Assembly (NCBI GenBank): GCA_028710135.1
Contig: JAQUSS010000002.1
Coordinates: 1-53,552, forward strand
Length of the DNA stretch: 53,552 nucleotides
Source of the DNA: Gemmiger sp.
Lineage (GTDB): Bacteria; Bacillota; Clostridia; Oscillospirales; Ruminococcaceae
Reading direction: 5' to 3'
The position numbers and the translations under genes are program-made. Below the pieces are notes generated by a model. It had not been told where the DNA came from. It was given only the letters and a program-made list of their open reading frames with translations, and searched no databases. This document shows positions 20,690 to 44,272 of the stretch, one piece after another; within the stretch, counting starts at the first letter, position 1; every line of letters begins with the position of its first letter.

Positions 20690-20748
20690 CAAAAAAACAA
20701 AAGTGCCCGGTAGCCCCCCCTTGCGGGGTATAAAGCCTACCGGGCACT
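20690..20748 (-). terminator. Terminator of the 15-gene system 2 operon
   Basis: Arms AGTGCCCGGTAG (20702-20713) and CTACCGGGCACT (20737-20748) form a 12-bp stem. On the minus strand it is followed by a T-rich tract (TTTTGTTTTTTT). It lies about 100 bp past the GH30 stop codon. The 20552-20852 gap holds only this element and the poorly defined promoter area of the YibE/F gene. Confidence 0.85.
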
Positions 20749-20852: not shown

Positions 20853-22190
20853 TCACCCCAGCAGCACCGTGGCAATGGCATCGCCGGGCAGTTGCAGGGT
20901 GGCAAGGGCCCCCTCCAGGCGCAGGTTGACCGGTTTTTCCTCCGCCGTTCGGTTCATCAGCACCACGGCCAGGCGGCCATCCGGCCGGCAAAAGGCCGTC
21001 ACATCGATCGCATCGGTGTAGCGGCTCATGCCGATGCGCACAGAGCCGGGCAGAATGGCGCGGCTAAAATGGCCGATATACTCGTAGCTGAGGGTTTTCT
21101 CCATGGTATCGGTTGCCGCATCGTACAGGATGGGGGCCTCGCACAGGTTGTTCACATGGTTTGGCCCACCGGCACGGTCAAACAGGATGCACCACGCAAT
21201 AAAGCCGCAGGCACCGCCGTTTAAATTCCCCACAATGTCGTGGCCGTACATCCGCGCGTTGGCCAGCGCATCGCTTTGAAAGCGGCTGTACTCCACACAC
21301 CCTTCGGTGAAAAGCAGCTTTAGCCGGGGGTAGCGCGCGTGCAGCATGGCCAGCGCCTCAAAATGGTCGCCCGAATACCAGTGGAATGCCACGCCCGCAA
21401 TAAGCGGCGCGGTGTCCTCGTCCAAAATTTCCAGGGCGCGCTCCAGGGCACGCTCCTTATTATGGTCCCAAATGTACAGCTCTAAGCTATCGGCCAGGCC
21501 GTGCGCTTTCAGGGCCGGGCAGAGGTAATCGCGCAAAAATTCCTTTTCCTCCTGCGCTGTGTACTCGCAGGAATCCCAGGTTTGGGCGGCTTTTGGCTCA
21601 TTCTGCACGCTGATGCGGCGGATATCCACACCGCGGGCGCGGTATTCTTGGATGTAGCGGCAAAAATATTCCGCCCACAGGGCACCGTAGGCGGGCTTTA
21701 AGTGCCCCCCACCATTTTTTTGCCCGTTCGTTTTCATGAAGGGCGGCGGGCTCCAGGGGCTGAGCATCACCGTGATGCCGCCGGGCGTGGCGGCGTTTGC
21801 ATCCGCAAAAAAGGGCAGGATATACTGCGCATCCCGCGCGAGCGAGAAGCTTGCAAGGGTAAGATCCTGCGCATCCTCCATGGCAGAATAATTGCCAAGG
21901 GCGGCATCGCAGCTATCCAGCGCCATACGCGCCTGGGTGTAGCCAAGGCCGGTTTTGCCAAAGTATGCCTCAAGGAATTCTGCCTGCCGCGCGGCCGGCA
22001 TCCGGCTGTACACATAGGCGGATGCCTCCGTCAGCGCACCGCCAAACCCCTCAAAGGTCTGGTAGCGGAACGCCGGGTGCAGGTTGATGGCTTCACGCTC
22101 CTGCCCGGTATCGGGCACAAAATCAAGGATACCGCTTGTTTTTACAGCGCGGCCATCCCGCCACGCCGTTGCATTCCAACTACCTTTCAT
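20853..22190 (-). CDS. GH30-family glycoside hydrolase (copy 2)
   Basis: A 445-aa cytoplasmic GH30 enzyme, paralogous to the one at 471-1802. It has SPWSPPPFMKTNG, acid/base E198 in VQNEPKA and nucleophile E296 in LFTEGC. No signal peptide is present. It is the last gene of the 15-gene operon and starts 4 bp after deoC. It presumably releases the monosaccharide that the isomerase, kinase and aldolase upstream consume. The divergence from copy 1, spread over the whole length, suggests an old duplication and possibly a different substrate. Confidence 0.9.
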   Translation of the reverse strand: MKGSWNATAWRDGRAVKTSGILDFVPDTGQEREAINLHPAFRYQTFEGFGGALTEASAYVYSRMPAARQAEFLEAYFGKTGLGYTQARMALDSCDAALGNYSAMEDAQDLTLASFSLARDAQYILPFFADANAATPGGITVMLSPWSPPPFMKTNGQKNGGGHLKPAYGALWAEYFCRYIQEYRARGVDIRRISVQNEPKAAQTWDSCEYTAQEEKEFLRDYLCPALKAHGLADSLELYIWDHNKERALERALEILDEDTAPLIAGVAFHWYSGDHFEALAMLHARYPRLKLLFTEGCVEYSRFQSDALANARMYGHDIVGNLNGGACGFIAWCILFDRAGGPNHVNNLCEAPILYDAATDTMEKTLSYEYIGHFSRAILPGSVRIGMSRYTDAIDVTAFCRPDGRLAVVLMNRTAEEKPVNLRLEGALATLQLPGDAIATVLLG

Positions 22191-22194
22191 CGTT

Positions 22195-22878
22195 TCACCG
22201 CGCTTTCAGCTCCTCCACAATGGCCACGCTGGCCGTGGAGCCAATGCGCGAAACACCCAGCTCAATCATGTGCAGCGCCGTATCCAACGTGCGGATGCCG
22301 CCCGCCGCCTTGATTTTTACCCCATCGCCCACGGCACGCTTCATCAGCGCAACATCCTCAAACGTTGCGCCGCCCGTGCCAAAGCCGGTGGAGGTTTTGA
22401 TGTAATCGGGGCGCACCTCCCGTGCAATGCCACACAGGGATAATTTTTCAGCCTCTGTCAGATAGCAGTTCTCGAAAATCACCTTGGAGGTTGCACCTGC
22501 CGCGCGGCATAGCGCCACAATGGTATTCATTTCACGCTCGATATACCCATAGTTTTTTTCCTTGAGCTGAGTGATATCAATCACGTAATCAATCTCGTCC
22601 GCCCCGTTTTCAATGGCCTCCTTCGCCTCAAACGCCTTTGCGGCAATCGTGTTTTGCCCCAAGGGGAAGCCCACCGCCGCGCCCACGTGTACCGCCGTGC
22701 CGGCCAGCAGCTTTTTGCACAGTGCCACAGGCACCGGGTTGATGGCCACCATGGCAAAGCCGTAGGCGCGGGCTTCGGCACACACCTTCTCAAAATCCGC
22801 GTTCACCGCATAGGCGCGCAACTGGGTGTGGTCAAAGTATTTTGCAAGTGCCTGCGGTGTCAGTTCTGTATGCAGCAT
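22195..22878 (-). CDS. deoC: DeoC-family class I aldolase
   Basis: A 227-aa deoxyribose-phosphate aldolase-type TIM barrel. The Schiff-base lysine is K161 in DYIKTSTGF and the second catalytic lysine is K190 in KIKAAGGI, matching the K167/K201 pair of the E. coli enzyme. The start ATG 22878 follows AAAGGAGA; the open frame extends further upstream but that part overlaps the alcohol dehydrogenase gene in another frame. DeoC normally splits 2-deoxyribose 5-phosphate into glyceraldehyde 3-phosphate and acetaldehyde. Here it sits with an isomerase, kinase and oxidoreductases instead of the usual nucleoside genes, so a related deoxysugar phosphate may be the real substrate. Confidence 0.9.
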   Translation of the reverse strand: MLHTELTPQALAKYFDHTQLRAYAVNADFEKVCAEARAYGFAMVAINPVPVALCKKLLAGTAVHVGAAVGFPLGQNTIAAKAFEAKEAIENGADEIDYVIDITQLKEKNYGYIEREMNTIVALCRAAGATSKVIFENCYLTEAEKLSLCGIAREVRPDYIKTSTGFGTGGATFEDVALMKRAVGDGVKIKAAGGIRTLDTALHMIELGVSRIGSTASVAIVEELKAR

Positions 22879-22897
22879 CTTATTTTCTCCTTTTCTA

Positions 22898-23947
22898 TCA
22901 TGAAATGGGCGGTACGATAACCGTTTTAAGCCCTGCCGCGCTGGACGCATAGGCCAGTGCGGTGCTAAAATCCGCCAGGGCAAAGCATTTGGAAACCAGT
23001 GCGCCCAGCTTAAGGTTCCCGGCGGCCTCCATTTTTGCCACGGCGCGGAACTGGGCCACATTGGCCCGGGTGGAGCCACAGATGGATAGCTGCCGGTAAT
23101 GGATAAAGTTGGTGGCCAGGCACACCTCGTCCCGCCCGGTGGGCAGGCCGCCAAAATAGAGGATACGCCCGTTCATGGCCATCAGCGATGGGGCCTGTGC
23201 CTGCGCCGCGGCGGAGGGGCAGGCGGTGATGCAAACATCCACGCCGCGCCCCTTTGTTTCCTGCATAACCTCCTCCAGCAGGTTATTGCCGGGCAGCGCG
23301 GCAGCCCCCGGCACAAGAGCCAGGCACTGCTGCCGGCGCGCGGCGCTTAAATCGCTAATCAGCACCCGGGCCGCCCCGCTGGCCTGTGCCAGCAGGGCGT
23401 GCATCACGCCGATGGGCCCGGCACCAATCACCAACACCGTATCGTTCAGCCGCACCCCAGCGCGCTGCTGGCCGTTGAGCACACAGGACATTGGCTCAAA
23501 CAGCGCCGCCGTGGCAAACGGCGTTTCCGTGCCCAGCACCATAACATTGCCCTGCGCGATGGCCGCGCCCGGCACGCACAGATACTCGGCAAAGCCGCCA
23601 TCCCGGTTGATGCCAAACGCCTGGTACTGTGTACACAGGTGGGTATCCCCCCGCACGCAGGCATCGCAGATGCCACACCCCATGTTGGGGGCCACCGCCA
23701 CCCGCATACCCGGCGCGTAGCCCTGCACGTTCTGCCCCACCTGCACGATGGTACCGCTGACTTCATGGCCAAGCGTCAGGGGGTGGCGTTCATCCACACC
23801 CTTCCACCCGTTGGCCACCATCCGCAGGTCGGTGCCGCAGATGGCGGCTGCCTCCACGCGGAGCAGCATCTCATCGGATGTAATTGCCGGAACATCACAC
23901 TCTACCACGCGCACATCGCCCGGGCCAAACAATTTTGCTGCCAGCAT
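22898..23947 (-). CDS. Zinc-dependent medium-chain alcohol/polyol dehydrogenase
   Basis: A 349-aa MDR-superfamily dehydrogenase of the sorbitol/threonine dehydrogenase type. Catalytic zinc ligands are C37 (ICGTD) and H61-E62 (GHE). The structural-zinc cysteines lie in GCGICDACVRGDTHLC, and the NAD(P) loop is VIGAGPIG. ATG 23947 was chosen because AAAGGGAG precedes it and longer versions would run into the previous gene. It lies 25 bp after the Gfo/Idh/MocA gene and 19 bp before deoC. It could oxidise a sugar or polyol intermediate, or reduce the aldehyde released by the aldolase. Confidence 0.88.
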   Translation of the reverse strand: MLAAKLFGPGDVRVVECDVPAITSDEMLLRVEAAAICGTDLRMVANGWKGVDERHPLTLGHEVSGTIVQVGQNVQGYAPGMRVAVAPNMGCGICDACVRGDTHLCTQYQAFGINRDGGFAEYLCVPGAAIAQGNVMVLGTETPFATAALFEPMSCVLNGQQRAGVRLNDTVLVIGAGPIGVMHALLAQASGAARVLISDLSAARRQQCLALVPGAAALPGNNLLEEVMQETKGRGVDVCITACPSAAAQAQAPSLMAMNGRILYFGGLPTGRDEVCLATNFIHYRQLSICGSTRANVAQFRAVAKMEAAGNLKLGALVSKCFALADFSTALAYASSAAGLKTVIVPPIS

Positions 23948-23972
23948 ACCAGCACTCCCTTTCCGCAGGCTG

Positions 23973-24989
23973 TCACAGCCTGACAATTTCCCCTGTTTTG
24001 ATGGATTCGTTCCCCGCCTGCACAATCTGCACCGCCCGCAAGCCGTCCAGCCCGGTCACTTCGGGGGGGCGGCCCTTTTGGATGCAGTTTACAAAACTGG
24101 TATCCTCCCGCAGGTAGGCATCCTCAAACAAATTCATCCAGCTTTTTACCACATCGCCGTGCAGGCCACCCTCCTTGGTAAAGGCCACGGTGCGGGTGTT
24201 TTGCAGCCCCCCCACCTGGATAGCCCCCTTGGTGCCCAGGATATCCACCCGCGCATCGTAGCCGTACTGCACCCCCTGCGCACCGTCAATGCTGCCAAGC
24301 ATTCCGTTTGCCATGCGCAGGTTCATCAGCACGGTATCGTAAAAATCCGGGTAGCTGGGCCGAATCTCGCCGCAGCGGTAGTTGCCGGCCATGGCATACA
24401 GGCTTTGCACCTCGCTGCCGGTCAACCAGCGCAGCGTATCAATGTCGTGGCTGTTCACCTCGGCCAGCGGGCCGTTGCTTTTTTGGATGTCATACATCCA
24501 TTCCCGGGGGGTGCTGGGGCCGCGTGTGAGGGATTTTACCATCACAACCTCCCCAATCTGCCCGCTCTCCACAATCTCTTTGGCACGGCGGAAGCCCTCG
24601 TCAAAGCGGCGCATAAAACCAACCTGCAGCGCCACCCCGTTTGCATCGGCGGCCTGCTGCATCTGCCGGCACTCCTGCGCGTTCATGGCCATGGGCTTCT
24701 CGCACAGGATGTGCTTTTTGGCCTGCGCCGCCGCCACCACAATCTCGTGGTGGTACTTGGTGGGTGTAACAACAATCACGGCATCCACGGCCGGGTTTTC
24801 CAAAACCTGGCGGTAGTCTGTAGTCCAGCCATCGGCGCCCAGCTCCTCCGCCGCCTGGCGGGCGCTTTGCTCCACCACATCCGATACCGCAACCATCCTT
24901 GCGCCCGGTACCCGCGCTGCAAAATTGCGCGCGTGGATCATTCCCGCACGCCCCGCGCCAATCAGCGCAATGCCCAGTTCAGCCTTCAT
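23973..24989 (-). CDS. Gfo/Idh/MocA-family oxidoreductase (system 2)
   Basis: A 338-aa NAD(P)-dependent sugar/cyclitol dehydrogenase. The N-terminal Rossmann fold starts ALIGAGRAGMIHA. The family CEKPMAMN motif carries the catalytic lysine, and VNSHDIDTLRWL fits the substrate-site His/Asp region. ATG 24989 is preferred over 25007 because AAGGGGA precedes it and it clears the kinase stop codon. Members oxidise inositol, glucose, or C3 of glycosides. Its place between the kinase and the alcohol dehydrogenase suggests sequential redox steps on the same sugar. Confidence 0.9.
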   Translation of the reverse strand: MKAELGIALIGAGRAGMIHARNFAARVPGARMVAVSDVVEQSARQAAEELGADGWTTDYRQVLENPAVDAVIVVTPTKYHHEIVVAAAQAKKHILCEKPMAMNAQECRQMQQAADANGVALQVGFMRRFDEGFRRAKEIVESGQIGEVVMVKSLTRGPSTPREWMYDIQKSNGPLAEVNSHDIDTLRWLTGSEVQSLYAMAGNYRCGEIRPSYPDFYDTVLMNLRMANGMLGSIDGAQGVQYGYDARVDILGTKGAIQVGGLQNTRTVAFTKEGGLHGDVVKSWMNLFEDAYLREDTSFVNCIQKGRPPEVTGLDGLRAVQIVQAGNESIKTGEIVRL

Positions 24990-25003
24990 ACGGCATATCC
25001 CCT

Positions 25004-26509
25004 TCATCTCACGTAATATAATTCAGAAACAGTATCCAGCACACGGCGGTATTGCCGGGCCAGTGGTGCATAGGCCGTGTGGCGCGCAGCATCCCACGCG
25101 GCCTGTTCCCTGCTTTGCAGGGTTTTGCGTATGGGGGCCTGCGCATCCGGGTACAGCCCTGCCGCGCAGCCCGCTATCACCGCACTGCCTACCAGCGCGG
25201 TATCCCCGGTTTGGGTGGCGGTAGCCTTCACGCCCAGCACGTCGGCCTTAATCTCCAAAAATAACCGGGAGGCCGCACCCCCGCCCACCGCCGTCATCTC
25301 GGCAAAGTGGCTGGCGGGGTAAAGCTGGCGCAGCACCCACAGGTAATACGCATATTCGTAGGCAATCCCCTCCAAAACAGCGCGGTAAAGATGCCCGCGG
25401 GTATGCTTCCAGTTTAACCCGGTAAAGCTGCCGCGCAGCGCGGGGTTGCTTGGCAGTACCCGGCCGCCGAAATGCGGCACAAAGCACAGCCCCTCGGCCC
25501 CCGGCGGCACCGCGCGCGCCTCTGCCTCCAGTGTGGCATAGCTGGCCGGCGGTGTGCCGGTAAATTGATCGCGGAACCAGCGGATGCAAAGCCCGCCGCC
25601 ATTGATGTAGGCCAGCGGATACCACCGGTTTTCCTCGGGGGCACGCATCATCGTGATGGTGCCAAAGCGGGTATCGGGTACAAATTGATTTACCCGCGTG
25701 CAAAGCACCGATGCCGTACCCGCACAGTCCAGCAGGCGGTTTTGCTCAAACAGGCCCGCGCCAAAGATGGAGGCTGCCGTATCGCCCGCCCCCACCGCCA
25801 CCGGGGTACCGGCGGCAAGGCCCGTGGCCTGTGCAAACGCCGCGCTGATGCCCCCGGCCTGCTCTATCGGGGAGGCGATGCGCGCCATTTTGCTACTTTC
25901 CACCCCAAACGCCCCCAGCAGCTCGGGTGACCATTGCTTGGCCAGGTTATCCCCAAAGCCGGAGTATTGCAGGCAGGTATGGTCAAAGGTGGCCGCGGCA
26001 GCGGGCAGTGCGCACATTTTGCCCACCACATACCCGTGCGGCAACACAAATTTGGCAATGCGGCGGTAAACCTCCGGCCGTTCGTTTTTCCACCAAAGGA
26101 TTTTGGGCCCGTGCGTGTAGGTGACCGGCCCACCCGTAATTTGCGTGATGCGGGTACCCGCTTGCTCGCGCATCTGCTTTACATAAGGCTCGCACCGGGT
26201 ATCCAACCAGGAATCGTAGCAGGTAACGGCCTCGCCATCCGCCCCAATGCCCAAAATGCCCGCCATTTGGGAATCTACCCCCACCGCTTGCACCCGGCCT
26301 GCCTGTGCGGCGGGGCTTTGCAGTAGGGTTTTTATCGTGCGCTGCACCGAGCCGTAAATTTCGTCCGGCTCCTGCCAAACGGTGCCGGGCGCAGGCTGAA
26401 TCAGGCGGGAGGCTTCAAACGCCGTGGCTACACAGTGCATTTCGGCATCAAACAGGCCGGCCTTGGTGCCCTGTGTGCCGATATCCACCCCAATCAAATA
26501 TGCTTTCAT
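25004..26509 (-). CDS. FGGY-family carbohydrate kinase, xylulokinase-like
   Basis: A 501-aa sugar kinase of the FGGY family, closest in style to xylulokinase. The N-terminal phosphate loop reads GVDIGTQGTKAGLFD. The catalytic aspartate region is GAGDTAASIFGAG and the C-terminal ATP site is AVGGGAASRLFLEIKADVLG. Length is normal for the family. It lies 30 bp after the isomerase and 14 bp before the Gfo/Idh/MocA gene. The likely job is to phosphorylate the ketose made by the FucI/AraA-like isomerase, giving a sugar phosphate for the DeoC-type aldolase. Confidence 0.9.
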   Translation of the reverse strand: MKAYLIGVDIGTQGTKAGLFDAEMHCVATAFEASRLIQPAPGTVWQEPDEIYGSVQRTIKTLLQSPAAQAGRVQAVGVDSQMAGILGIGADGEAVTCYDSWLDTRCEPYVKQMREQAGTRITQITGGPVTYTHGPKILWWKNERPEVYRRIAKFVLPHGYVVGKMCALPAAAATFDHTCLQYSGFGDNLAKQWSPELLGAFGVESSKMARIASPIEQAGGISAAFAQATGLAAGTPVAVGAGDTAASIFGAGLFEQNRLLDCAGTASVLCTRVNQFVPDTRFGTITMMRAPEENRWYPLAYINGGGLCIRWFRDQFTGTPPASYATLEAEARAVPPGAEGLCFVPHFGGRVLPSNPALRGSFTGLNWKHTRGHLYRAVLEGIAYEYAYYLWVLRQLYPASHFAEMTAVGGGAASRLFLEIKADVLGVKATATQTGDTALVGSAVIAGCAAGLYPDAQAPIRKTLQSREQAAWDAARHTAYAPLARQYRRVLDTVSELYYVR

Positions 26510-26539
26510 GGCACCCCCTTCGGCTTTTTTAGCCCGGGT

Positions 26540-27883
26540 TCATAACACCTCTGTTGCAAACCCGTAAATTTTTGCCATTTGCAACAGCGGTGCCGTTGCA
26601 TCGCCCGCAATTAAGATGGCATGGTGCGAGGATAAGCTTTCCATCACCTGGTGGCCGCTGTTGTTTTGATAGCGCAGCAGCGCCCCGTTGCGGCAATCGG
26701 AGCCGGGGTATTGTTCATAGCCTTCAATCTCCGCCTGAATGATGGTAAGCTTTTGCATATCCGAATGCAGCTTTGCCATGGTTACCGGGCCGGGGCGCAT
26801 ACGGCAATCAATCGCCACCGCGTCATCGCCCACAATTTCCAGCACCTTGGGGCGCAGCATCCACTGGGCGCAAAAGCTTTGCGGCACCATCCCAAAGTAG
26901 CCACAGTGTACGCCCAGCGCGTGGTTATCCGGGTCGTCAATCGCGGGGAACTTCTCAATTTTTTCGTGTTTCAGCGCGGCCATCCCCACCAGGAACGGGT
27001 AGATGTTGGTCATCATCAACGGGCGTTCCAGCGCCGAATGCAGGATGTACTCGCTAATCAGGGTAACGGTATCGCCCTCACACGCCCAAAGGATATGGTC
27101 GTACTCATACATCCAGTTCCAGGCAAGGCAGGGTGTGGTATCACTGTGGAAAGATTCATTCAGGCAGTTGGCACCCACGCCCACCACATTGCCCACGGCA
27201 TCCACCTGCCGCTTAATGGCCATGTATAACTTAACGGCTTTCAGGATGCCGCCGGGCGATACCCCCTGCTGTGGCACGGCGCGGGCCTGCCACAGTGCCG
27301 CGGCAGCCTCGTCCGGTATGGCCCGCGCCTCCTCGTTGAGTGCCCGCCAGCTTCGGTAAAGAATCTTCACGCCGAACGCTGCCTCAATACGCGCGGTACA
27401 CTGTGTTTCCCACCAGTAAAAGCGCTTAAAGATGTTGGCCTGCATCCCCTCCCCCGGCGTATCCTCAAAAATCAGGAAGCAGGCGCCGCTGCGCAGGTAG
27501 CGTTTTGCCGCCATGGCCCGCAGCAGCACGTTGGCCAATTCCACCGTGTAGGGGGTAAGCACCAGCAGCCCCAATTGCTCACGCAGGTACGCCACAATCT
27601 CCCAGTCCCACATTTCCACGGTGCCAAACTCTGAGGTGAGTACCAAGATGGGCAGTTGCAGTTTTTCCATCTCCGCCTTGTGGGCAAACACGGCGCCAAG
27701 CAACTGTGGGAACACCACCGCATCCACCCCGGCCGGCACCGGCGTGCCCAGCACCGCCGCAGGCAAAAACTCTGCCGTGCCCGCGTACCGTTCGCCCAGC
27801 GCCCGCAGCTGTTCGCCCCGCTCCGCATTTTCCCGCTCGTTGGCTTCCGCAAAATACAGGGGCAGCAATCGCGCTTTCATCAT
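26540..27883 (-). CDS. L-fucose/L-arabinose isomerase-like protein
   Basis: A 447-aa member of the FucI/AraA-type aldose-ketose isomerase superfamily, shorter than classical FucI (about 590 residues). Candidate metal or active-site residues lie in LNESFHSD, WACEGDT and GVHCGYFG. Such enzymes need Mn2+ and interconvert aldoses such as L-fucose, D-arabinose or L-arabinose with their ketoses. The two tandem ATG codons at 27883 and 27880 are both possible; AAAGAGG precedes them. Placed directly before an FGGY kinase, it very likely makes that kinase's substrate. The sugar is unknown. Confidence 0.8.
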   Translation of the reverse strand: MMKARLLPLYFAEANERENAERGEQLRALGERYAGTAEFLPAAVLGTPVPAGVDAVVFPQLLGAVFAHKAEMEKLQLPILVLTSEFGTVEMWDWEIVAYLREQLGLLVLTPYTVELANVLLRAMAAKRYLRSGACFLIFEDTPGEGMQANIFKRFYWWETQCTARIEAAFGVKILYRSWRALNEEARAIPDEAAAALWQARAVPQQGVSPGGILKAVKLYMAIKRQVDAVGNVVGVGANCLNESFHSDTTPCLAWNWMYEYDHILWACEGDTVTLISEYILHSALERPLMMTNIYPFLVGMAALKHEKIEKFPAIDDPDNHALGVHCGYFGMVPQSFCAQWMLRPKVLEIVGDDAVAIDCRMRPGPVTMAKLHSDMQKLTIIQAEIEGYEQYPGSDCRNGALLRYQNNSGHQVMESLSSHHAILIAGDATAPLLQMAKIYGFATEVL

Positions 27884-27916
27884 ATCTTTCGCCTCTTTAT
27901 CTCTTTCTATTTGCCG

Positions 27917-28633
27917 TTACCAGGGCATCAAATCTCCCTGGTAGGTCATATACTCCCACGTCGGAGGGATTTCGGCCGCACGGTTGACGATATCCCAAAT
28001 GCCGTCCGCACTCTCCTGCGGTTGGATGGCGGTGGTGGATTCTGCCGCCGTGATGCCCCCCAGCTTGGTTTTCATCCAGCCCGGATGGATGGCAAACACC
28101 CGCACGCCCTGCTGGTAGAACTCGTTCGATAGCACCCGCGCGCTCATGTTGGCCGCCGCCTTGGACATATCGTAGAGGTACATATTGGGGCGGCGGCAGT
28201 TGTTGATGCTGCCTGCCTCGGAGGTTACCAGCACAATCACGGTTCCCTTGCCCAGCAGCGGCGCGGCCTCCTTCACAACGCGTATGCCGCCCAGGGCGTT
28301 CACCTCAAACATCTTCATGCCGCCATCGATATCGGTATCGGCAATGCCCACGCGGTCCTCCTCCTCAAACATACCCGCCACGCTATAGAGGTAATCGATC
28401 TGTTTGCCCGCCGCCAGGGCCGGGGCCAGCGCCGCCTTGATTTGCTGGGTATTGCAGACATCACAGTCGCTCAGATGGAAGGTATCGGGGTATTGCTTGG
28501 CCAGCTGGCGGGTTTGGTCAATGCTATCGCGCTCTAAGCCGTATACTTCATCGCCCATCTCCAAGTGTTTTTTTGCAAGGCAGAAGGCAAGGCCCTGCCC
28601 CACACCCGTAATAACTGCGGTTTTGTTCATCAT
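27917..28633 (-). CDS. Short-chain dehydrogenase/reductase (system 2)
   Basis: A 238-aa classical SDR oxidoreductase. The cofactor loop is TGVGQGLA and the catalytic pair sits in YDMSK. The usual NAG motif is YSVAG here. The start lies one base after the preceding CoA-disulfide reductase stop codon with AAAGGAG upstream, so translation is probably coupled. Its opening and HPGWMKTKLGG block resemble the SDR at 47195 in system 3, so related reactions may occur in both systems. Substrate unknown. Confidence 0.88.
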   Translation of the reverse strand: MMNKTAVITGVGQGLAFCLAKKHLEMGDEVYGLERDSIDQTRQLAKQYPDTFHLSDCDVCNTQQIKAALAPALAAGKQIDYLYSVAGMFEEEDRVGIADTDIDGGMKMFEVNALGGIRVVKEAAPLLGKGTVIVLVTSEAGSINNCRRPNMYLYDMSKAAANMSARVLSNEFYQQGVRVFAIHPGWMKTKLGGITAAESTTAIQPQESADGIWDIVNRAAEIPPTWEYMTYQGDLMPW

Positions 28634-30310
28634 TCATTTCTCCTTTTTATTCTGTTCTTGTTGTGTCATGGCACCGCAGGGTGCGGTGTGCAGGCCGGAA
28701 AGGTCTTGCTCCTTCATCACCGAGGCATACAGCCGGTAGCCGCCTGCCAGGTTGTGGCAGGTAAAGCCGTTTTGCGCCAGTATGCGGCAGGCAATGTAGC
28801 TGCGCAGCCCGCTTTGGCAGTTTACGTAGAGGGGTTTGGCGGCATCCAGCTCCCCCAGGCGGCCACGAAGTTCATCCAGCGGCAGGTTTACCGCGCCCTC
28901 GATGTGGCCGCGGGCATACTCCCCGGCGGTGCGCACATCCAGCAGGGCAACATCGCCCCGCGCCTGCAAGCCCGGTACATCGTGCCAGTGATACTGGTGG
29001 ACGGTTCCATCCAGCAGGTTGCCAATCATAAAGCCCGCCATATTGACAGGGTCCTTTGCGGAGGAGAAGGGCGGTGCATAGGCAAGCTCCAGCTCTGCAA
29101 GGGCGGCGGCGTTCAGCCCGGCGCGAATTGCCGTGGCCAGCACATCGATGCGTTTATCTACGCCTGCCCCGCCCACCGCCTGTGCGCCAAGGATTTTGCC
29201 ATCCTGTTTGGCAAACAGCACCTTAAGGCTCATAAAATCGGCACCCGGGTAGTACCCCGCGTGGGAGGGTGACCATAGAAAGACCTTATCGTACCCAATG
29301 CCCGCGCGCTGTGCCGCGGCCTCGTTCAGGCCGGTGCAGGCCGCCGTTGTGCCAAACGTGCGGAAAATACAGCTCCCCTGGCTGCCCACATAGCGGGTGG
29401 GGTGCCCGCAGATGTTATCGGCCGCAATGCGCCCTTGGCGGTTGGCCGGCCCGGCCAGCGGCACAAAGGCATCGGCCCCGGTCAACAAATCTTGCACCTG
29501 CACGGCATCCCCCACCGCATAGATGGCGGGGTCGGCGGTGCGCATATGCTCGTCCACCACGATGGTTCCGCGCACGCCCAGCGCAAGGCCCGCCTGCGCT
29601 GCCAGCTCGCTCTCCGGCTTGACCCCGGCGCACAGCAGCACAAGGTCGGCATTCAGCTCCCCAACCGATTGGATGCGGCGGCCAGTTTCCAGGTGTACCC
29701 CGTTGCGCAGCAGGCAGTGGGTAAGCTCGCAGGCCACATCCGCGTCCAGCATGGGTGCCACGTGCGCGGCGGCCTCCACCACGGTCACCGCCAGGCCGGC
29801 GCGGTGCAGGTTTTCGGCCATCTCCAGCCCGATTGCCCCGCCACCCACGATGGCCGCCGTTTTCGGCTGGTTTTCCCGGATAAACGCCTCAATACGGCAG
29901 GCATCCTCCAGCGTGCGCAGTGTAACCACCTGCGGGGCATCCAGCCCCTCTACCGGGGGCAGGGCCGGTTTGGCGCCGGGGGCAAGAAGCAGCGTATCGT
30001 AATGTTCCTCGTAGCTGGTGCCAGCTGCGGTGCGCACCCGCACCGTTTTGCCGGCACGGTCAATCGCCACTGCCTCATGCCCCACCCGCACATCCACGGC
30101 AAACCGGGTGCGGAAGCTTTCGGGCGTTTGCAGGGTCAGCGCCTCGCGCTCGGTAATTTCGCCGCCGATATAGTAGGGCAGGCCGCAGTTTGCGTAGGAG
30201 ATGTAGCCGCCGCGCTCCAGCAGCACAATTTCCATCTTTTCATCCAGGCGGCGCAACCGCGCAGCCGCCGATGCACCACCGGCCACGCCCCCCACGATAA
30301 GCGTTTTCAT
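28634..30310 (-). CDS. CoA-disulfide reductase fused to a rhodanese domain
   Basis: A 558-aa flavoprotein. The N-terminal part is a pyridine nucleotide-disulfide oxidoreductase with FAD loop GGVAGGASAAARLRRL and the single active cysteine C42 in SYANCGLPYY, as in CoA-disulfide and CoA-persulfide reductases. The NAD(P) loop is VGGGAIGLEMA. The C-terminal 90 residues form a rhodanese domain with persulfide-accepting C498 in YVNCQSGLRS. Such fusions reduce CoA-disulfide, polysulfide or persulfide. The start overlaps the C_GCAxxG_C_C gene by 4 bp. A thiol/persulfide enzyme within a sugar operon is unusual and may reflect the substrate's chemistry. Confidence 0.92.
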   Translation of the reverse strand: MKTLIVGGVAGGASAAARLRRLDEKMEIVLLERGGYISYANCGLPYYIGGEITEREALTLQTPESFRTRFAVDVRVGHEAVAIDRAGKTVRVRTAAGTSYEEHYDTLLLAPGAKPALPPVEGLDAPQVVTLRTLEDACRIEAFIRENQPKTAAIVGGGAIGLEMAENLHRAGLAVTVVEAAAHVAPMLDADVACELTHCLLRNGVHLETGRRIQSVGELNADLVLLCAGVKPESELAAQAGLALGVRGTIVVDEHMRTADPAIYAVGDAVQVQDLLTGADAFVPLAGPANRQGRIAADNICGHPTRYVGSQGSCIFRTFGTTAACTGLNEAAAQRAGIGYDKVFLWSPSHAGYYPGADFMSLKVLFAKQDGKILGAQAVGGAGVDKRIDVLATAIRAGLNAAALAELELAYAPPFSSAKDPVNMAGFMIGNLLDGTVHQYHWHDVPGLQARGDVALLDVRTAGEYARGHIEGAVNLPLDELRGRLGELDAAKPLYVNCQSGLRSYIACRILAQNGFTCHNLAGGYRLYASVMKEQDLSGLHTAPCGAMTQQEQNKKEK

Positions 30311-30774
30311 TTGGCATCCTCCGGCGGGTTTTCACGCAGCATCCGGGCTGCAATCTCTGCGCCGCAGCGGATATATTGGGGGCAAAGCTTGCTAAAAAGC
30401 TCGTTATCCAGCACATAGGCCAGCCCCTCCGGCGTGTTGGTGTCGGCCCCCAGCAGTTCCTTACAGGTCAGCTTGCCATCGTTTTGGGCGCGGAACTCCT
30501 CAAAAAAGCGCTGCGCCATCTCGTAGCTTTTGGGGGTAGCCTGGGCATCATCCGGCAGTATTTTTCCGTACTTCATGCCAATCAGCATCACCGCGCCGGT
30601 TACGGCGCCGCAGGTTTCGGTCAAGTGGCCAATGCCGCTGCCAAAGGCACCCGCAAACCGCAGTGCCGTCACGCGGTCAATACCAAATTCCTCGCACAGG
30701 GAGCTTACCACTGCCTGCGAGCAGTTAAACCCTTCACGGTGGCAGGCCACCGCACGTTCTCCATAGATACTCAT
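30307..30774 (-). CDS. C_GCAxxG_C_C family protein
   Basis: A 155-aa cysteine-rich protein of the C_GCAxxG_C_C family, which is thought to bind a cofactor or act in redox reactions but has no firm function. Conserved features are FNCSQAV (C18), C27, and ETCGAVTGA (C55) with a Gly-rich stretch between. AAGGAGG precedes the start. It is translationally coupled (4-bp overlap) to the CoA-disulfide reductase/rhodanese gene, so the two are likely functional partners in electron or sulfur transfer. Confidence 0.85.
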   Translation of the reverse strand: MSIYGERAVACHREGFNCSQAVVSSLCEEFGIDRVTALRFAGAFGSGIGHLTETCGAVTGAVMLIGMKYGKILPDDAQATPKSYEMAQRFFEEFRAQNDGKLTCKELLGADTNTPEGLAYVLDNELFSKLCPQYIRCGAEIAARMLRENPPEDAK

Positions 30775-30795
30775 TGTATTGTTACATCCTCCTTA

Positions 30796-30837
30796 AAAAG
30801 GCCGGGCACGGGGAGCGTGTGCTCACGCGGCCCGGCA
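30796..30837 (-). terminator. Intercistronic hairpin after lipoprotein 2
   Basis: On the minus strand GCCGGGC pairs with GCCCGGC across a structured 23-nt loop and is followed by TTTTT, between the lipoprotein gene and the C_GCAxxG_C_C gene. It splits the operon into a transport part and a catabolic part and may reduce expression of the latter. Confidence 0.65.
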
Positions 30838-30892
30838 CATCACTGCATCGAACGGTTTCTAATTAAGTTAAGCCGGTTTGGGGGCGGGTAGG

Positions 30893-32428
30893 TCAGTGCC
30901 CGGCATCCCACTTGGTAATAAACTCGTCCAGTTGGCGCTGAATCTCGGCCTTTACCTTCTCGTTATCGGCGGCCTCCAACTGCTTGTTAATTTCCTCCAT
31001 ACCGGCCACGGGGTCGGTCATCCCCAGCACCAGCGGGGTATAATACTGCGACATAATGTTTTGGATGGCCGAATACTCGCTCTTAATGCTATCGGTATCC
31101 ATAAAGAAGGAGCGGTATTTGTTTTCCTTCACCGAATTTTTAAGGGATTCTACCGCCTTACCGTAGGAATCGGGCAGGCCGGTGGGCAGGCGGGTCAGCT
31201 CGTTGGTGCGGAACCCCCACCCGCAGGAATCCAGCGGGAATACATCCGGGTTCAGGGCTTCAACCGTTCCATCCTCCAAAATATTGCTGTGTACGCCGGG
31301 GATGCCATAGACAAACAAATCATAGTAGCGCGGGTCGGTGCGCAGTTTTTCCAGCAGCATCAGGGCGCGCTCGGGGTTTTTGGCGCTGGTGGGGATGGCC
31401 ATGCCGTCCTGCATGGCAGATTGAATTTCCACATGGTTGGTCATCTCGTACCACTGGAAGTCCCACTCGGGGCGCAGGATGCACAGGTCCCGCCACCAAT
31501 CCACGTTATGGATTTGCGAGGCACTTTTGCCGGTTTCCTGCATGGTGCTATCCTGGTTGGCCAGTGCATCGGCCGGCCAAAAGCCCTTCTCCGCCCAGCG
31601 GTCATACATGGCAAGGTCCTGCTGGAATTCGGGGTATTCCGTCACAAAGAAAACCGTGGGGTGTTCTTGGCTGGGGTCAATCCAGTACGGGCTGCCGGTG
31701 CTGCCCGTCAGCGGGTAATAGCCGCGGCTTAAGGCCACAACGTCATCCTGCTGTTTGCCATCGGCGTACACGCCGCTGGGCTGCATATTCGGCTCGTTTG
31801 CTTTGATGGCATCCATATACGCCTCATACCCGGCCCAATCGGTGATGGGGTCAACGCCGTACTTTTGCATCAGGTCGCCGCGCGCGGCGATACCCCACGC
31901 GCTGTAGGTATCCTTGCCGGAGGGGATGGCGTATACGTGCTCCCCCACGGTGGCCTGGAACTTTGCCGCATCGGTAATTTGCGCCCAGGTCTTGGGTGCA
32001 TACTGGGGGCCAAGCTCCTCCAGCGGCAGGAAGGCACCCTTGCGGGCTTCCTGGTAATAATTTGTCCAGGTAGCGGTGTAGATTAAATCCACCGGGTCGC
32101 CCGAGGAGAGCAGCAGCGGATACTGGGTAAGGTAATCGGCAAAGCCCAGCCAGTTAACCTCCAGCGTTGCGTTTAGCTCCTCCTTGAGCAGCTTGTTGAA
32201 CTCGACCAGCATATCGGGGAAGCCGACCGGTTCGCCGCCAATCACATACATAACCAGCGTCGCCTCCTCAAGCGCGCCGGGTGCGGAGGACGCCTCCCCC
32301 GCCGTGCTGCCCGCCGGGGCAGCGGAGGATACCGAGCTGGGCGCGCCGCCGGCGCAGCCGCACAGCAGCGATACCACCAGCGCCAGTGCCAGCAGCAGGG
32401 AAATTGCGGTGTGTGTGTTCCTTTTCAT
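30893..32428 (-). CDS. Extracellular solute-binding lipoprotein (system 2)
   Basis: A 511-aa sugar-type ABC binding lipoprotein. The lipobox is LLCGC with Cys25 as the acylated residue, then a Ser/Ala-rich linker. ATG 32428 follows AAAAGGAG; the longer frame from 32461 adds residues in front of a normal signal sequence and is rejected. Unlike systems 1 and 3, the binding protein comes after its two permeases. It should supply the system 2 oligosaccharide or glycoside to the permeases at 33386-34366 and 32465-33370. Confidence 0.9.
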   Translation of the reverse strand: MKRNTHTAISLLLALALVVSLLCGCAGGAPSSVSSAAPAGSTAGEASSAPGALEEATLVMYVIGGEPVGFPDMLVEFNKLLKEELNATLEVNWLGFADYLTQYPLLLSSGDPVDLIYTATWTNYYQEARKGAFLPLEELGPQYAPKTWAQITDAAKFQATVGEHVYAIPSGKDTYSAWGIAARGDLMQKYGVDPITDWAGYEAYMDAIKANEPNMQPSGVYADGKQQDDVVALSRGYYPLTGSTGSPYWIDPSQEHPTVFFVTEYPEFQQDLAMYDRWAEKGFWPADALANQDSTMQETGKSASQIHNVDWWRDLCILRPEWDFQWYEMTNHVEIQSAMQDGMAIPTSAKNPERALMLLEKLRTDPRYYDLFVYGIPGVHSNILEDGTVEALNPDVFPLDSCGWGFRTNELTRLPTGLPDSYGKAVESLKNSVKENKYRSFFMDTDSIKSEYSAIQNIMSQYYTPLVLGMTDPVAGMEEINKQLEAADNEKVKAEIQRQLDEFITKWDAGH

Positions 32429-32464
32429 CGTTACAACTCCTTTTTTTGATTTTATTGTCACAGG

Positions 32465-33370: not shown

Positions 33371-33385
33371 CTGTGTTCCCTCCCT

Positions 33386-34366
33386 TTAAAAGAGCGCGTA
33401 GTCGCTGTCAATTTTTTTCACCAACGCGTTCACACCCACGATGATGATGAAGCATAGCACCGATTGGTACAGTGTGGCGGCCATCGTCATGCCGATGTCC
33501 CCGCCGGATGCCAGCGAGCGGAACACAAAGGTATCAATCACATCGGTTGCATCGTACAACTGCCCGTTGCGGCCCACAATCTGGTAGAACATCTGGAAAT
33601 CCCCGCGAAGGATACGGCCCACGTTGAGCAGTACAATGGTGATGACCGTTGGCTTGATGGAGGGCAGCGTGATACGCCAGATTTTCTGCCAGACGTTGGC
33701 ACCATCGATATCGGCGGCCTCGTAGCATTCACTGTCGATGCCTGTGATTGCCGCAATGTACACCACCGAGTTATACCCCACCCATTTCCAGGAGTTGAAA
33801 ATCATGATGATGAAAAACCACGCGCTGGGCATCGCATAGAGGTTGATGGGGTCGTGCCCCAGCGCCACCAGAAAGTGGTTGAGCACGCCGTTATCCACAT
33901 TGAAAATGTTGTAGACAAAGGCACCCACCAAAATCCACGAAACAAAGTAGGGCAGGAAGGAAACCGACTGGATGATTTTTTTAAAGCGCCGGCCCCAAAT
34001 TTCGTTCAGCACAACGGCCAAAACCAGGGAAAGTAGCTGCGAGGTGATAAGATTGGCCGCGTTGTACACAATGGTGTTTACGGTTACCCGCAGCCCCGTG
34101 CCGGAAAGAAAGAAAAATTTAAAATTTTGCAGGCCAACCCAGGGGCTGCCCACAATGCCAAGGTCATACCGGTAATCCTTGAAGGCCAGCACAATCCCCC
34201 CAAGCGGGATGTATTTGAAGAGCAAAACCAGAAGTAGCGCCGGCAGCAACATCAAAAAAAGGCTCCGGTTCTTTTTCATTTCGCTCCATAGCGGATGCTT
34301 TTTGCCAGCCAATGCCCCTGTGGCACCGGTGGGCGTCAGCGCATTCTGTGCGTTCTGTTTTTTCAT
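33386..34366 (-). CDS. ABC sugar permease, LplB type (system 2)
   Basis: A 326-aa permease with about six membrane helices. The EAA loop is EAADIDGANVWQKIWRITLP. I chose ATG 34366 because GAGGAGG precedes it; the open frame extends to 34417, but that part overlaps the end of the aminotransferase gene. It is the first transport gene of the operon and no ATPase gene accompanies it. Confidence 0.92.
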   Translation of the reverse strand: MKKQNAQNALTPTGATGALAGKKHPLWSEMKKNRSLFLMLLPALLLVLLFKYIPLGGIVLAFKDYRYDLGIVGSPWVGLQNFKFFFLSGTGLRVTVNTIVYNAANLITSQLLSLVLAVVLNEIWGRRFKKIIQSVSFLPYFVSWILVGAFVYNIFNVDNGVLNHFLVALGHDPINLYAMPSAWFFIIMIFNSWKWVGYNSVVYIAAITGIDSECYEAADIDGANVWQKIWRITLPSIKPTVITIVLLNVGRILRGDFQMFYQIVGRNGQLYDATDVIDTFVFRSLASGGDIGMTMAATLYQSVLCFIIIVGVNALVKKIDSDYALF

Positions 34367-34404
34367 GGCAATACCTCCTCCATCTTGAACACGGCGCCGG
34401 GGGG

Positions 34405-35604: not shown

Positions 35605-35649
35605 AGCGGTTTCCCTTCCTGTCCGGTATTTTTTTGGTATCCCTGGGGC

Positions 35650-36636
35650 TTACCAGGCGTAGGCCCACGGGGCCATCCCACCCGGGCCGGGGAAAATCTC
35701 ATCCAGGCGCTTCATCTCTTGCTCCCCCAGGTGGATTTCTAAGCATTTTAGGCTATCCTCCAGCTGTGCGCGGGTGCGCGGCCCCACAATAACGGAGGTT
35801 ACCGCATCGCTGTGCAACAGCCAGGCCAGCGCAATTTGGTCTTGCGGGTAGCCCAGCTCCTTGGCAAACGCATCGAACTGTTCTAACTTCGGGCGTGCTT
35901 TCTCAATATTTTCGGCAATGCGGGCGGCGCGCCCACCGTGGGCCTTATCCAGCGCGTTGCGGCCCAGCAGGCCACCCTGCAACGGGCTCCACGGCAGAAT
36001 GCCGATGCCGTTTGCCTTGGCCGCAGGCAGCACTTCCAGCTCCGGCAGGCGGCAATCCAGGTTATAGCGGTGCTGCTCGCAAACAAGGCCCAGGAAATGG
36101 CGTTTTTCTGCGGCGGCCTGGGCTGTGGCCAAATCCCAGCCTGCAAAATTGCTGGAGCCTACATAGTCCACCTTGCCCGCGCGCACCACCCCCTCAAATG
36201 CCTCCCACAGCTCCGGCCAGGTGGCGCTGCGGTCAATGTGGTGCATATAATAAAGCTCCAAATGGTCGGTTTGCAGCCGCTGAAGCGACTTTTCAAGGTG
36301 CCGCCGCACCTTGTAGAGCGAGAGCCCCGCCTCAGCGTTGGGGCCTTCCTCCGCAAAGTCGGAGTCCATGGTGTCGTACACCTTGCTGGCAAGGATGGTT
36401 TTTGTCCGCCTGCCGCCGCCCAAGGCAAACCAGCGCCCCAAAATGCGCTCGCTCTCGCCCGTGTTGCTGCCCGGGCCGTAGGCATCCGCCGTATCAAACA
36501 GGGTGATGCCCGCATCCAGTGCGCAGTCCATGATGGCCTGCGCCTCCTTCTCCTGCGTCTGTGCGCCAAAATTCATCGTGCCAAGGCAAAGGCGGCTTAC
36601 CCGCAGGCCACTTCTTCCCAAACGTGTATATTCCAT
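35650..36636 (-). CDS. Aldo/keto reductase
   Basis: A 328-aa NADPH-dependent aldo/keto reductase with a TIM-barrel fold. The opening YTRLGRSGLRVSRLCLGTMNFG is family-typical. The catalytic tetrad can be traced as Asp and Tyr in DTADAYGPG, Lys in TKTILASKV and His in YMHHID. ATG 36636 lies 4 bp after the AraC regulator's stop codon; its ribosome site (AGGGG) sits inside that gene, so coupling is likely. Probable task: reducing an aldehyde or keto-sugar in the system 2 route. Substrate not identifiable. Confidence 0.9.
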   Translation of the reverse strand: MEYTRLGRSGLRVSRLCLGTMNFGAQTQEKEAQAIMDCALDAGITLFDTADAYGPGSNTGESERILGRWFALGGGRRTKTILASKVYDTMDSDFAEEGPNAEAGLSLYKVRRHLEKSLQRLQTDHLELYYMHHIDRSATWPELWEAFEGVVRAGKVDYVGSSNFAGWDLATAQAAAEKRHFLGLVCEQHRYNLDCRLPELEVLPAAKANGIGILPWSPLQGGLLGRNALDKAHGGRAARIAENIEKARPKLEQFDAFAKELGYPQDQIALAWLLHSDAVTSVIVGPRTRAQLEDSLKCLEIHLGEQEMKRLDEIFPGPGGMAPWAYAW

Positions 36637-36640
36637 ATGG

Positions 36641-37543
36641 TTACCCCTGCTCTCTTTCCAATTGTTCGTCAACTTCTTCATCGGCAAGCATCCGGCGCCG
36701 CCACCGGCTGGGTGTTTCCCCCATGCGGGCCACAAACAGCGTATTGAAGCTGGAAAGTGACTCAAACCCAACCTCCAACGCCACCTCCAGCACCGATACA
36801 TCCGTGCGCAGCAGCCGCTCACAGGCCTGGTTCAGGCGCTGGCTGCTCACGTAGCTCGTCACACTCTCGCCCATAATTTGCTTAAACCGGCGGCGGAAAT
36901 TTGCCGTACCCATGTGGCATAGCGCCGCCATGCAGTCTACCTCGCTATCCCCAAAGCCCTGCCGGTTCAAGTAGCGCAGCGCCGGGTATATCTCCTGGAT
37001 TTCGTCGCTGAAAAACCGGATGTTGTCGGAGATATCGCCCCGGCAGCGCAGCACCTCCACCAGCAGGGAGATGACCATCCCCCGCACCATCACCTGGTAA
37101 TTTTCATTTTTCTCCCGGAACTCGGCCAAAATGCCCTGCATCAGCCAAGATACAATCGGGCATTCTTTTTTGCGCAGCAGGCAGCGTGCGGTTTTGTTGT
37201 CGTGGCGCAGCAGGCTTTTAAAATCAATGTACACGGGCCGTATATTTTCCAACAGGCCGTGTGGGTCGATGCAGATATAATCAAACGGCAGGGCCGCCTG
37301 CCCACCCACAATGCGGATGCCCCGGCAGGTGCTGATGGCCGGCAGCACAAGCACATCCCCCGGTGCCAGCTGCACGGTTTCGCCGTTCACCCGCGCGGCA
37401 CACGCTGCAAGGCAAAGTGCAAACTCAATGCTGCCAACCAACCGGGGCTTATCCCGGTTGCCCTTGCCTGCGCCCACATCCTCATGTAAAAACGCGTAGA
37501 CCGGGAAGGTTTCTTCCTGCGCACAAAGCGGTTGCTGCGTCAT
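36641..37543 (-). CDS. AraC-family regulator heading the system 2 operon
   Basis: A 300-aa soluble AraC-family activator. The N-terminal cupin-like sensor (about 1-170) includes QLAPGDVLVLPA. The C-terminal double helix-turn-helix (about 200-295) contains CHMGTANFRRRFKQIMG and SVLEVALEVGFESLSSFN. ATG 37543 follows GGAGGGAGAG; upstream in-frame codons have no ribosome site. As first gene of the 15-gene run it probably controls its own operon, and the region shared with the divergent AraC gene at 37890 may allow cross-regulation. Confidence 0.87.
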   Translation of the reverse strand: MTQQPLCAQEETFPVYAFLHEDVGAGKGNRDKPRLVGSIEFALCLAACAARVNGETVQLAPGDVLVLPAISTCRGIRIVGGQAALPFDYICIDPHGLLENIRPVYIDFKSLLRHDNKTARCLLRKKECPIVSWLMQGILAEFREKNENYQVMVRGMVISLLVEVLRCRGDISDNIRFFSDEIQEIYPALRYLNRQGFGDSEVDCMAALCHMGTANFRRRFKQIMGESVTSYVSSQRLNQACERLLRTDVSVLEVALEVGFESLSSFNTLFVARMGETPSRWRRRMLADEEVDEQLEREQG

Positions 37544-38956: not shown

Positions 38957-39075
38957 TGAACAAATTGCGCACTTTATGCAAAAAAAGTGCCTAAAAGCTG
39001 TCAGTAAGCGACAAAAACACTTTGGATGCTCCCTGCGGAGCCTTCGGAACACCAAAAAAGAAGGATGTGATTTCC

Positions 39076-44196: not shown

Positions 44197-44237
44197 GCCG
44201 TAGCAGGGTATCATACCCAAAAATAATACGCAGCAAT

Positions 44238-44272
44238 AATGGGGGAGGGTTCGATCCTTCCCCCATTTTAAA
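44238..44272 (+). terminator. Intercistronic hairpin after lipoprotein 3
   Basis: AATGGGGGAGGG (44238-44249) pairs, with one G-U wobble, with CCTTCCCCCATT (from 44256) and is followed by TTTAAAAA. It is placed exactly as the hairpins behind the other two lipoprotein genes. Confidence 0.65.

What the first reader, a model, noticed from the sequence alone, without database searches (positions are those of the whole stretch)
20853..37543. 15-gene one-strand operon encoding a possibly undescribed sugar catabolic route
Fifteen minus-strand genes from 37543 to the terminator at 20690 are spaced -4 to 45 bp apart, except for one 118-bp gap holding a hairpin. They encode uptake, a FucI/AraA-like isomerase, an FGGY kinase, a DeoC class I aldolase, two SDR/AKR reductases, a Gfo/Idh/MocA and a zinc dehydrogenase, and a GH30. 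The isomerase-kinase-aldolase order resembles L-fucose or L-rhamnose degradation, but the aldolase is DeoC rather than the usual class II enzyme. That suggests an unusual deoxy- or branched sugar released from a glycoside. I know of no described pathway with exactly this set.
Basis: partly seen in the sequence, partly recalled or inferred. Interest (0 to 1): 0.75.

Follow-up and report, generated by a model that had tools for sequence, protein, structure and literature searches.

The report
Conserved undescribed sugar-degradation gene cluster
A bacterium carries a long gene cluster that looks built to break down a sugar not yet identified, and a core of the same enzymes sits together in distant bacteria, which suggests a real but uncharacterised degradation route.

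Summary
In detail: 15 minus-strand genes run from 37543 to a terminator near 20690, spaced -4 to 45 bp apart, with one 118-bp gap holding a terminator-like hairpin. The 447-aa "isomerase" (ISO) has no PDB, Pfam or NCBIfam match of its own; AlphaFold/Foldseek and profile alignment place it in the AraA/FucI fold at about 13% identity. One pattern scan found 61 related loci in several phyla. Its usual partners are an FGGY kinase (35 of 61 loci, same strand in all 35) and an IolG-like/zinc dehydrogenase pair (adjacent in 28 of 28 loci holding both). Transport, PatB-like, CoA-disulfide reductase, AKR and GH30 genes are mostly local additions. The DeoC belongs to a clade apart from the genome's other DeoC. 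In 47 ISO genomes an AroE-like dehydrogenase is found in 2 of 10 genomes with this DeoC and 32 of 37 without, so two lower halves may replace each other; relatedness weakens that test. A divergent operon (GH1, second SDR) probably belongs to the system. Nine paper searches in an open-access library showed no such pathway. Substrate, step order and activity are unknown.

The parts
36641..37543 (-). AraC-family regulator, first gene of the operon
   Evidence: PF12833 E 5e-22
35650..36636 (-). aldo-keto reductase; a 51% identical relative sits directly before ISO in L046
   Evidence: PF00248
34405..35604 (-). class I/II aminotransferase, PatB/MalY-like (locus-specific)
   Evidence: PF00155; 0 of 61 loci; the name PatB/MalY is my reading, not a family hit
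33386..34366 (-). ABC permease 1
   Evidence: PF00528
32465..33370 (-). ABC permease 2
   Evidence: PF00528, 22.4 bits against a cutoff of 26.4
30893..32428 (-). solute-binding protein with DUF3502
   Evidence: PF12010; of 34 other genomes of the genus one has a match at E 1e-30, 27% identical
30775..30892 (-). 118-bp gap with terminator-like hairpin
30307..30774 (-). C_GCAxxG_C_C protein
   Evidence: PF09719, TIGR01909
28634..30310 (-). CoA-disulfide-reductase-like flavoprotein with rhodanese domain
   Evidence: TIGR03385 437 bits, cutoff 579
27917..28633 (-). SDR; relatives directly before ISO in L036 (46%) and nearby in L059 (39%)
26540..27883 (-). AraA/FucI-fold isomerase candidate of a new family (ISO)
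   Evidence: no hit; fold; profile; family
25004..26509 (-). FGGY kinase, best model XylB but below cutoff
   Evidence: linked in 35 of 61 loci
23973..24989 (-). IolG-like Gfo/Idh/MocA dehydrogenase (ATG at 25007 also possible)
   Evidence: TIGR04380 301 bits, cutoff 355
22898..23947 (-). zinc dehydrogenase, best model IolM (scyllo-inosose 3-dehydrogenase) but far below cutoff
   Evidence: 186 bits, cutoff 450; adjacent to IolG-like in 28 of 28 loci with both
22195..22878 (-). DeoC-family class I aldolase of a distinct clade
   Evidence: TIGR00126 225 bits, cutoff 117; clade 100/99
20853..22190 (-). GH30 glycosidase
   Evidence: PF02055/PF17189; nearest solved 2wnw
20691..20748 (-). intrinsic terminator closing the operon
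37890..38849 (+). AraC-family regulator opening the divergent operon
39022..42419 (+). sensor kinase (39022-40842) and AraC-type response regulator (40839-42419)
42628..46116 (+). second DUF3502 binding protein and two ABC permeases
46949..47920 (+). second SDR; relatives near ISO in L036 (39%) and L059 (33%)
50619..51974 (+). GH1 glycosidase; 66% identical to the GH1 two genes before ISO in L036
52004..53038 (+). further Gfo/Idh/MocA dehydrogenase

Best explanation
It is a probably laterally spread catabolic gene cluster for one sugar, perhaps taken up as a glucoside. Inferred route: ABC import; GH30 (and the GH1 of the divergent operon) cut the glycoside; the AraA-fold isomerase turns the released aldose into a 2-ketose; the XylB-like FGGY kinase phosphorylates it. 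The paired IolG-like and zinc dehydrogenases carry out two NAD-linked oxidoreductions. The DeoC paralogue, with its Schiff-base lysine kept but its donor side altered, makes the retro-aldol cut to a triose phosphate and a small carbonyl, which SDR or AKR may reduce. In most other carriers searched the DeoC step seems to be replaced by an AroE-like dehydrogenase module with a GPI-type cupin, a 2-hydroxyacid dehydrogenase, a PTE-like lactonase and a KDPG-type aldolase. Shown: gene content, fold of ISO (by model), linkage, co-occurrence, the DeoC clade. Suggested: the alternation. Inferred: order of steps, phosphate position, substrate, products.
For: ISO fold: AlphaFold pLDDT 88; Foldseek rows 1-33 are L-arabinose isomerases (E 1e-19 at best, TM about 0.7), rows 34-41 FucI-type enzymes. 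hhalign to FucI-type proteins 98.6%, E 5e-16, with E269, D271 and H421 aligned to identical residues and E243 to D; E243, E269, D271, H326, H420 and H421 are invariant in 38 members. Linkage: FGGY 35 of 61, IolG-like 34, ZnADH 31; FGGY on the ISO strand 35 of 35. Genome level: IolG-like over 500 bits in 41 of 47 ISO genomes. In 391 genomes of the window's class six have ISO at E 1e-20; the five strong ones all have IolG, against 3 of the other 386 (p 7.5e-10). Two ISO-less IolG/FGGY clusters (G692, G834) carry a FucI-type isomerase, and in G692 a neighbour passes the NCBIfam cutoff for D-psicose 3-epimerase, consistent with an aldose-to-ketose step. DeoC clade 100/99 (13 rows, 12 genes); D97, K161 and K190 invariant in nine rows. 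DeoC/AroE-like alternation p 1.4e-4.
Against: No activity, substrate or expression data. FGGY is not seen near ISO in 26 of 61 loci (13 of the 40 that are at least 12 kb), and DeoC at 50% identity or more is near it in only 7. Six of 47 ISO genomes lack a strong full-length IolG (G488, G492, G497, G498, G510, G516; G516 has a truncated copy). G872 has an ISO relative (436 bits) without an IolG hit. Two genomes (G514, G515) have both the DeoC clade and the AroE-like protein. Carriers are related, so p values overstate independence. The IolG model was built from genes near ISO, and at least G593, G605 and G677 of the class sample are genomes that also gave ISO loci, besides the window itself; only up to five candidates per genome were scored there. 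IolG-like or AroE-like modules also occur without ISO (G545, G692, G834; G603, G696), so they may serve other substrates. The operon's G+C (about 0.56-0.61) is like the rest of the window, so composition gives no sign of transfer.
Confidence: 0.5

Rival explanations
1. Two short pathways lie side by side for the two halves of one glycoside: ISO-FGGY for one sugar and IolG-ZnADH-DeoC (or the AroE-like module) for the other.
For: Modules are separable: IolG/ZnADH without ISO in G545 and G834 and IolG in G692; the AroE-like module without ISO or IolG in G603 and G696. In G490 and G500 IolG lies on another contig than ISO.
Against: FGGY stays with IolG/ZnADH where ISO is not found (G545, G834), so kinase and dehydrogenases look like one unit. 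G545's contig is only 8 kb and its assembly 85% complete, so its ISO could be missing from the data.
Confidence: 0.2
2. It is a cyclitol (inositol-type) glycoside pathway like the Thermotoga IolG-IolM-IolN-IolO route, with ISO and FGGY handling the ring-opened product.
For: The IolG-like protein's best NCBIfam model is inositol 2-dehydrogenase (301 bits), and all 21 members of alignment A3 match that model, best E 1.6e-90; the ZnADH's best model is IolM. The nearest solved GH30, 2wnw, is SrfJ (identity recalled), whose Salmonella gene is also expressed in medium with myo-inositol (abstract start of PMC5723671).
Against: Both scores are below the curated cutoffs (301 of 355; 186 of 450). An aldose isomerase, a sugar kinase and a psicose 3-epimerase are not part of the cyclitol routes I know. 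The Thermotoga steps are recalled, not read.
Confidence: 0.15
3. An ordinary sugar pathway: ISO is a divergent isomerase for a common sugar and DeoC a nucleoside-salvage aldolase that happens to be in the operon.
For: DeoC passes the deoxyribose-phosphate aldolase cutoff and the kinase's best model is xylulokinase.
Against: The genome has another DeoC (L001, 42% identical) placed in a different clade; the operon clade recurs with IolG and ZnADH near ISO in seven other loci including Vibrio; ISO has no match in the curated libraries at the thresholds used (weak Fucose_iso_C in 15 of 38 relatives).
Confidence: 0.15

Closest known systems
L-arabinose / L-fucose / L-rhamnose isomerase-kinase-aldolase pathways (steps recalled)
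   Same: AraA/FucI-fold isomerase next to an FGGY kinase; an aldolase in the same operon
   Different: ISO about 13% identical to AraA and in no curated family; class I DeoC-type aldolase; two paired dehydrogenases conserved with it
Thermotoga IolG-IolM inositol route (recalled; NCBIfam models used)
   Same: adjacent IolG-like and IolM-like dehydrogenases
   Different: scores below cutoffs; kinase, AraA-fold isomerase and DeoC instead of IolN/IolO
Klebsiella D-psicose locus with a gene annotated deoxyribose-phosphate aldolase (PMC6020474, passages read)
   Same: permease, kinase, epimerase, DeoR-annotated and DeoC-annotated genes in one sugar locus
   Different: kinase annotated as ribokinase type; allulose-6-phosphate 3-epimerase; no isomerase or IolG/ZnADH in the passages seen
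Levoglucosan pathway LgdA-LgdB1-LgdC (PMC10066097, passages read)
   Same: a levoglucosan-dehydrogenase-like Gfo/Idh/MocA protein and a PF01261 barrel lie in the neighbourhood of ISO in 16 and 18 loci
   Different: the Gfo protein scores 390 bits against a cutoff of 650; neither cluster has a member in the clustered part of the window, 16001-44200

Membership tests
AraA/FucI isomerase superfamily | AraA/FucI fold | tested here: met
   model only: Foldseek rows 1-33 AraA, 34-41 FucI-type
AraA/FucI isomerase superfamily | sequence similarity to a curated isomerase family | tested here: inconclusive
   window protein no hit; Fucose_iso_C in 15 of 38 members at E 0.1, best 1.7e-4; profile search of PDB gave only a chance-level aminoglycoside kinase, E 0.15; hhalign E 5e-16
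AraA/FucI isomerase superfamily | aldose-ketose isomerase activity | not testable with these tools
   needs assay
L-fucose / L-rhamnose degradation | class II aldolase on ketose 1-phosphate | tested here: not met
   the only aldolase found among the 15 operon genes is DeoC-type class I
deoxyribose-phosphate aldolase (DeoC) | TIGR00126 cutoff and catalytic residues | tested here: met
   225 bits, cutoff 117; D97, K161, K190 invariant; role of these residues recalled
deoxyribose-phosphate aldolase (DeoC) | groups with the genome's other DeoC | tested here: not met
   separate clade of 13 rows (12 genes), 100/99
inositol catabolism (IolG/IolM) | equivalog cutoffs | tested here: not met
   301 of 355 bits and 186 of 450 bits
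xylulokinase | TIGR01312 cutoff | tested here: not met
   262 of 380 bits

The most novel reading that the evidence does not exclude
An undescribed catabolic pathway for a rare sugar or cyclitol, spread over at least four phyla by record title, that runs through a new AraA-fold isomerase family and an IolG/zinc-dehydrogenase pair. It ends either in a re-purposed DERA aldolase that accepts a larger donor than acetaldehyde or in an AroE-like/KDPG-aldolase module; the two ends replace each other.
Probability: 0.4. Interest if true: 0.65.

Novelty: new variant of a known kind. Interest (0 to 1): 0.5.

Why it matters
If true it gives a new isomerase family, a natural DERA variant with altered specificity (DERA is widely used in synthetic chemistry; recalled) and an unrecognised carbon source used by bacteria of several phyla. 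The interchangeable lower halves offer a way to deduce the shared intermediate.

Tried and rejected
Standard fucose/rhamnose assignment: rejected, no class II aldolase found among the operon genes. Standard inositol assignment: not filed, both dehydrogenases are below cutoffs. A sulfur-containing substrate, suggested by the PatB-like and rhodanese genes and by a PF03313 gene (SDH_alpha) in five other loci, was set aside because those window genes are not seen around ISO elsewhere (0 of 61). D-allose, quinovose and 3-ketoglucose as substrates were considered from neighbouring genes, but nothing separates them. Paper searches: nine; searches returned nothing, mostly unrelated papers, and none of the listings showed this gene set. 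PMC6020474 and PMC10066097 were read as passages; all others were seen only as search listings with the start of the abstract.

Rows dropped or left out: the DeoC tree took 63 stretches and ended with 47 rows after identical ones were removed (the window's row included); stretches with an internal stop or under 180 aa were dropped first, and L076 and L030 are the same gene. For some searches I gave 48 of the 61 loci as handles (L007, L013, L014, L029, L032, L035, L048, L051, L053, L058, L063, L064 and L065 left out); L054 was not held, so 47 genomes were searched. Alignments: ISO 38 rows (the window and 37 of 61 loci), IolG-like 21, FGGY 18, AroE-like 12 of 13, ZnADH 16, DeoC 9 (two of them not of the operon clade). 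L004 and L005 (weak hits) were left out of the clustering. DeoC clade membership of the 47 genomes rests on fetched hits (the 30 loci returned); clade members score 295 bits or more, and second hits of some genomes were not fetched. G492, with a truncated DeoC, is not counted in the main test (with it p 2.4e-5).
Full report
What is there. In order of transcription: AraC regulator, aldo-keto reductase, aminotransferase (PatB/MalY-like by eye), two ABC permeases, DUF3502 binding protein, a 118-bp gap with a terminator-like hairpin, C_GCAxxG_C_C protein, CoA-disulfide-reductase-like protein with rhodanese domain, SDR, the 447-aa isomerase candidate (ISO), FGGY kinase, IolG-like dehydrogenase, zinc dehydrogenase, DeoC, GH30, and a terminator. 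No Rfam family reached its gathering score in the window.

ISO is a new family with a known fold. By sequence the window protein has no PDB match at E 1 and no Pfam or NCBIfam match; of 38 family members 15 match Fucose_iso_C weakly, best E 1.7e-4; a profile search of PDB gave one chance-level row. The AlphaFold model (mean pLDDT 88) matches L-arabinose isomerases in the first 33 Foldseek rows and FucI-type enzymes in the next eight, at 10-14% identity. Profile-profile alignment to FucI-type proteins gives 98.6% probability, with E269, D271 and H421 on identical residues; that these are metal ligands is recalled from FucI/AraA structures. One pattern-based scan of the genome-contig collection (84,980 species) confirmed 61 loci, in Bacillota, Treponema, Synergistaceae, Planctomycetia and Vibrio hannami by record title; such a scan finds close relatives only, and most records are metagenome bins, which can be mixed. 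Among 149 other relatives of the window's genome only two weak hits (26-28% identity) were found, and the operon's binding protein has a match in one of 34 other genomes of the genus, 27% identical. That suggests lateral acquisition; base composition gives no sign of it.

The conserved unit. In the 61 ISO loci (40 of them at least 12 kb long) the FGGY kinase is present in 35, the IolG-like enzyme in 34, the zinc dehydrogenase in 31 and DeoC at 50% identity or more in 7. Other operon genes are rare there: SDR 2, AKR 1, GH30 1, permeases 1, and CoA-disulfide reductase, C_GCAxxG protein, binding protein, aminotransferase and AraC 0 (with the identity thresholds set in that script). FGGY is on the ISO strand in 35 of 35; IolG-like and ZnADH are adjacent in 28 of 28 loci that hold both. 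Short contigs make these minimum counts. A DeoR-type regulator (by eye), not seen in this operon, is in 27 loci. At genome level 41 of 47 ISO genomes have an IolG-like protein above 500 bits. In an even sample of 391 genomes of the window's class, six have ISO at E 1e-20 or better, the five strong ones all have IolG, and three genomes have IolG without ISO (Fisher p 7.5e-10 for the five strong). G872, with a 436-bit ISO relative and no IolG hit, is the exception. The test is not blind: the models were built from genes around ISO, the window is in the sample, and G593, G605 and G677 have the same coordinates or contig length as genomes that gave ISO loci.

Two alternative lower halves. Neighbourhood clustering showed two settings: DeoC with IolG/ZnADH, or a set made of an AroE-like dehydrogenase (the one member tested has no NCBIfam match at 1e-10 and no Pfam match at 1e-5; "AroE-like" is my reading of its sequence), a GPI-type cupin, a 2-hydroxyacid dehydrogenase, a PTE-like lactonase and a KDPG-type aldolase, not all in every locus. 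In 47 ISO genomes the AroE-like protein is in 34. The tree puts 13 DeoC rows (12 genes), the window's among them, in one clade (100/99), apart from the same genome's other DeoC. Ten of the 47 genomes carry this clade; two of the ten (G514, G515) have the AroE-like protein, against 32 of the other 37 (p 1.4e-4). Outside the 47, the window's genome and G834 carry the clade and show no AroE-like protein. Several carriers are close relatives, so this is suggestive, not proven. The clade keeps the residues recalled as catalytic but changes others, for instance the position of E. coli C47 to A (numbering recalled), which could admit a larger donor; this is a guess.

Support for an aldose-to-ketose step. 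Two clusters that have IolG and FGGY but no ISO (G692, G834) carry a FucI-type isomerase, and in G692 a neighbouring protein passes the NCBIfam cutoff for D-psicose 3-epimerase (384 bits, cutoff 300). A related barrel (197 bits on that model for the one tested) lies near ISO in five loci. This favours a sugar isomerase role over a purely cyclitol one.

The divergent operon may belong in the picture. From 37890 rightwards lie AraC, sensor kinase, response regulator, a second binding protein and two permeases, SDR, two ORFs without Pfam match, epimerase, GH1 and a Gfo/Idh/MocA enzyme. The GH1 is 66% identical to a GH1 in L036, where the order is VOC protein (by eye), SDR, GH1, SDR, ISO; L059 and L012 also have GH1 near ISO. 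Glycosidases near ISO or its partners elsewhere include GH1, GH4, GH13-type, GH30 and GH88-family enzymes, GH3 by eye, and GH2-type proteins in the two ISO-less clusters. I take this as a hint of a glucoside-type substrate, no more.

Verdict. The substrate is not known, and every enzymatic step is inferred from family membership. On checking, the IolG count was corrected from 42 to 41 of 47 and the matched metal-site residues from four to three; neither changes the odds given.

Noticed in passing
window 471-13447: A second sugar-use region: another GH30 (48% identical to the first), AraC-type regulator, binding protein, two permeases, GH88-family protein, DUF2264 protein and a 620-aa protein without Pfam match.
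   Followed up: partly
window 13638-19256: 1872-aa protein with PT-type disordered repeats, Fn3_assoc and four DUF4214 stretches, between two sugar regions.
   Followed up: no
L054:3012-3944 and 11 relatives (alignment A5): AroE-like family (by eye) in 34 of 47 ISO genomes and in 8 of 391 genomes of the class, also without ISO (G545, G603, G692, G696); perhaps a dehydrogenase of its own catabolic module.
   Followed up: partly
L018:19140-21280 and L153:3119-8444: Glycyl radical enzymes near the ISO cluster, with an activating enzyme in L018; only L153:6204-8444 was tested (TIGR01774, 585 bits, below cutoff), the rest by eye.
   Followed up: no
window 47862-49608: Two overlapping ORFs with similar motifs and no Pfam match, between the second SDR and an epimerase; possibly an unassigned glycosidase or a tandem duplication.
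   Followed up: no
L028:12428-14839 and relatives in L022, L025, L030, L044: URO-D-family gene and PF03313 gene (SDH_alpha) between ISO and FGGY; role unknown.
   Followed up: no
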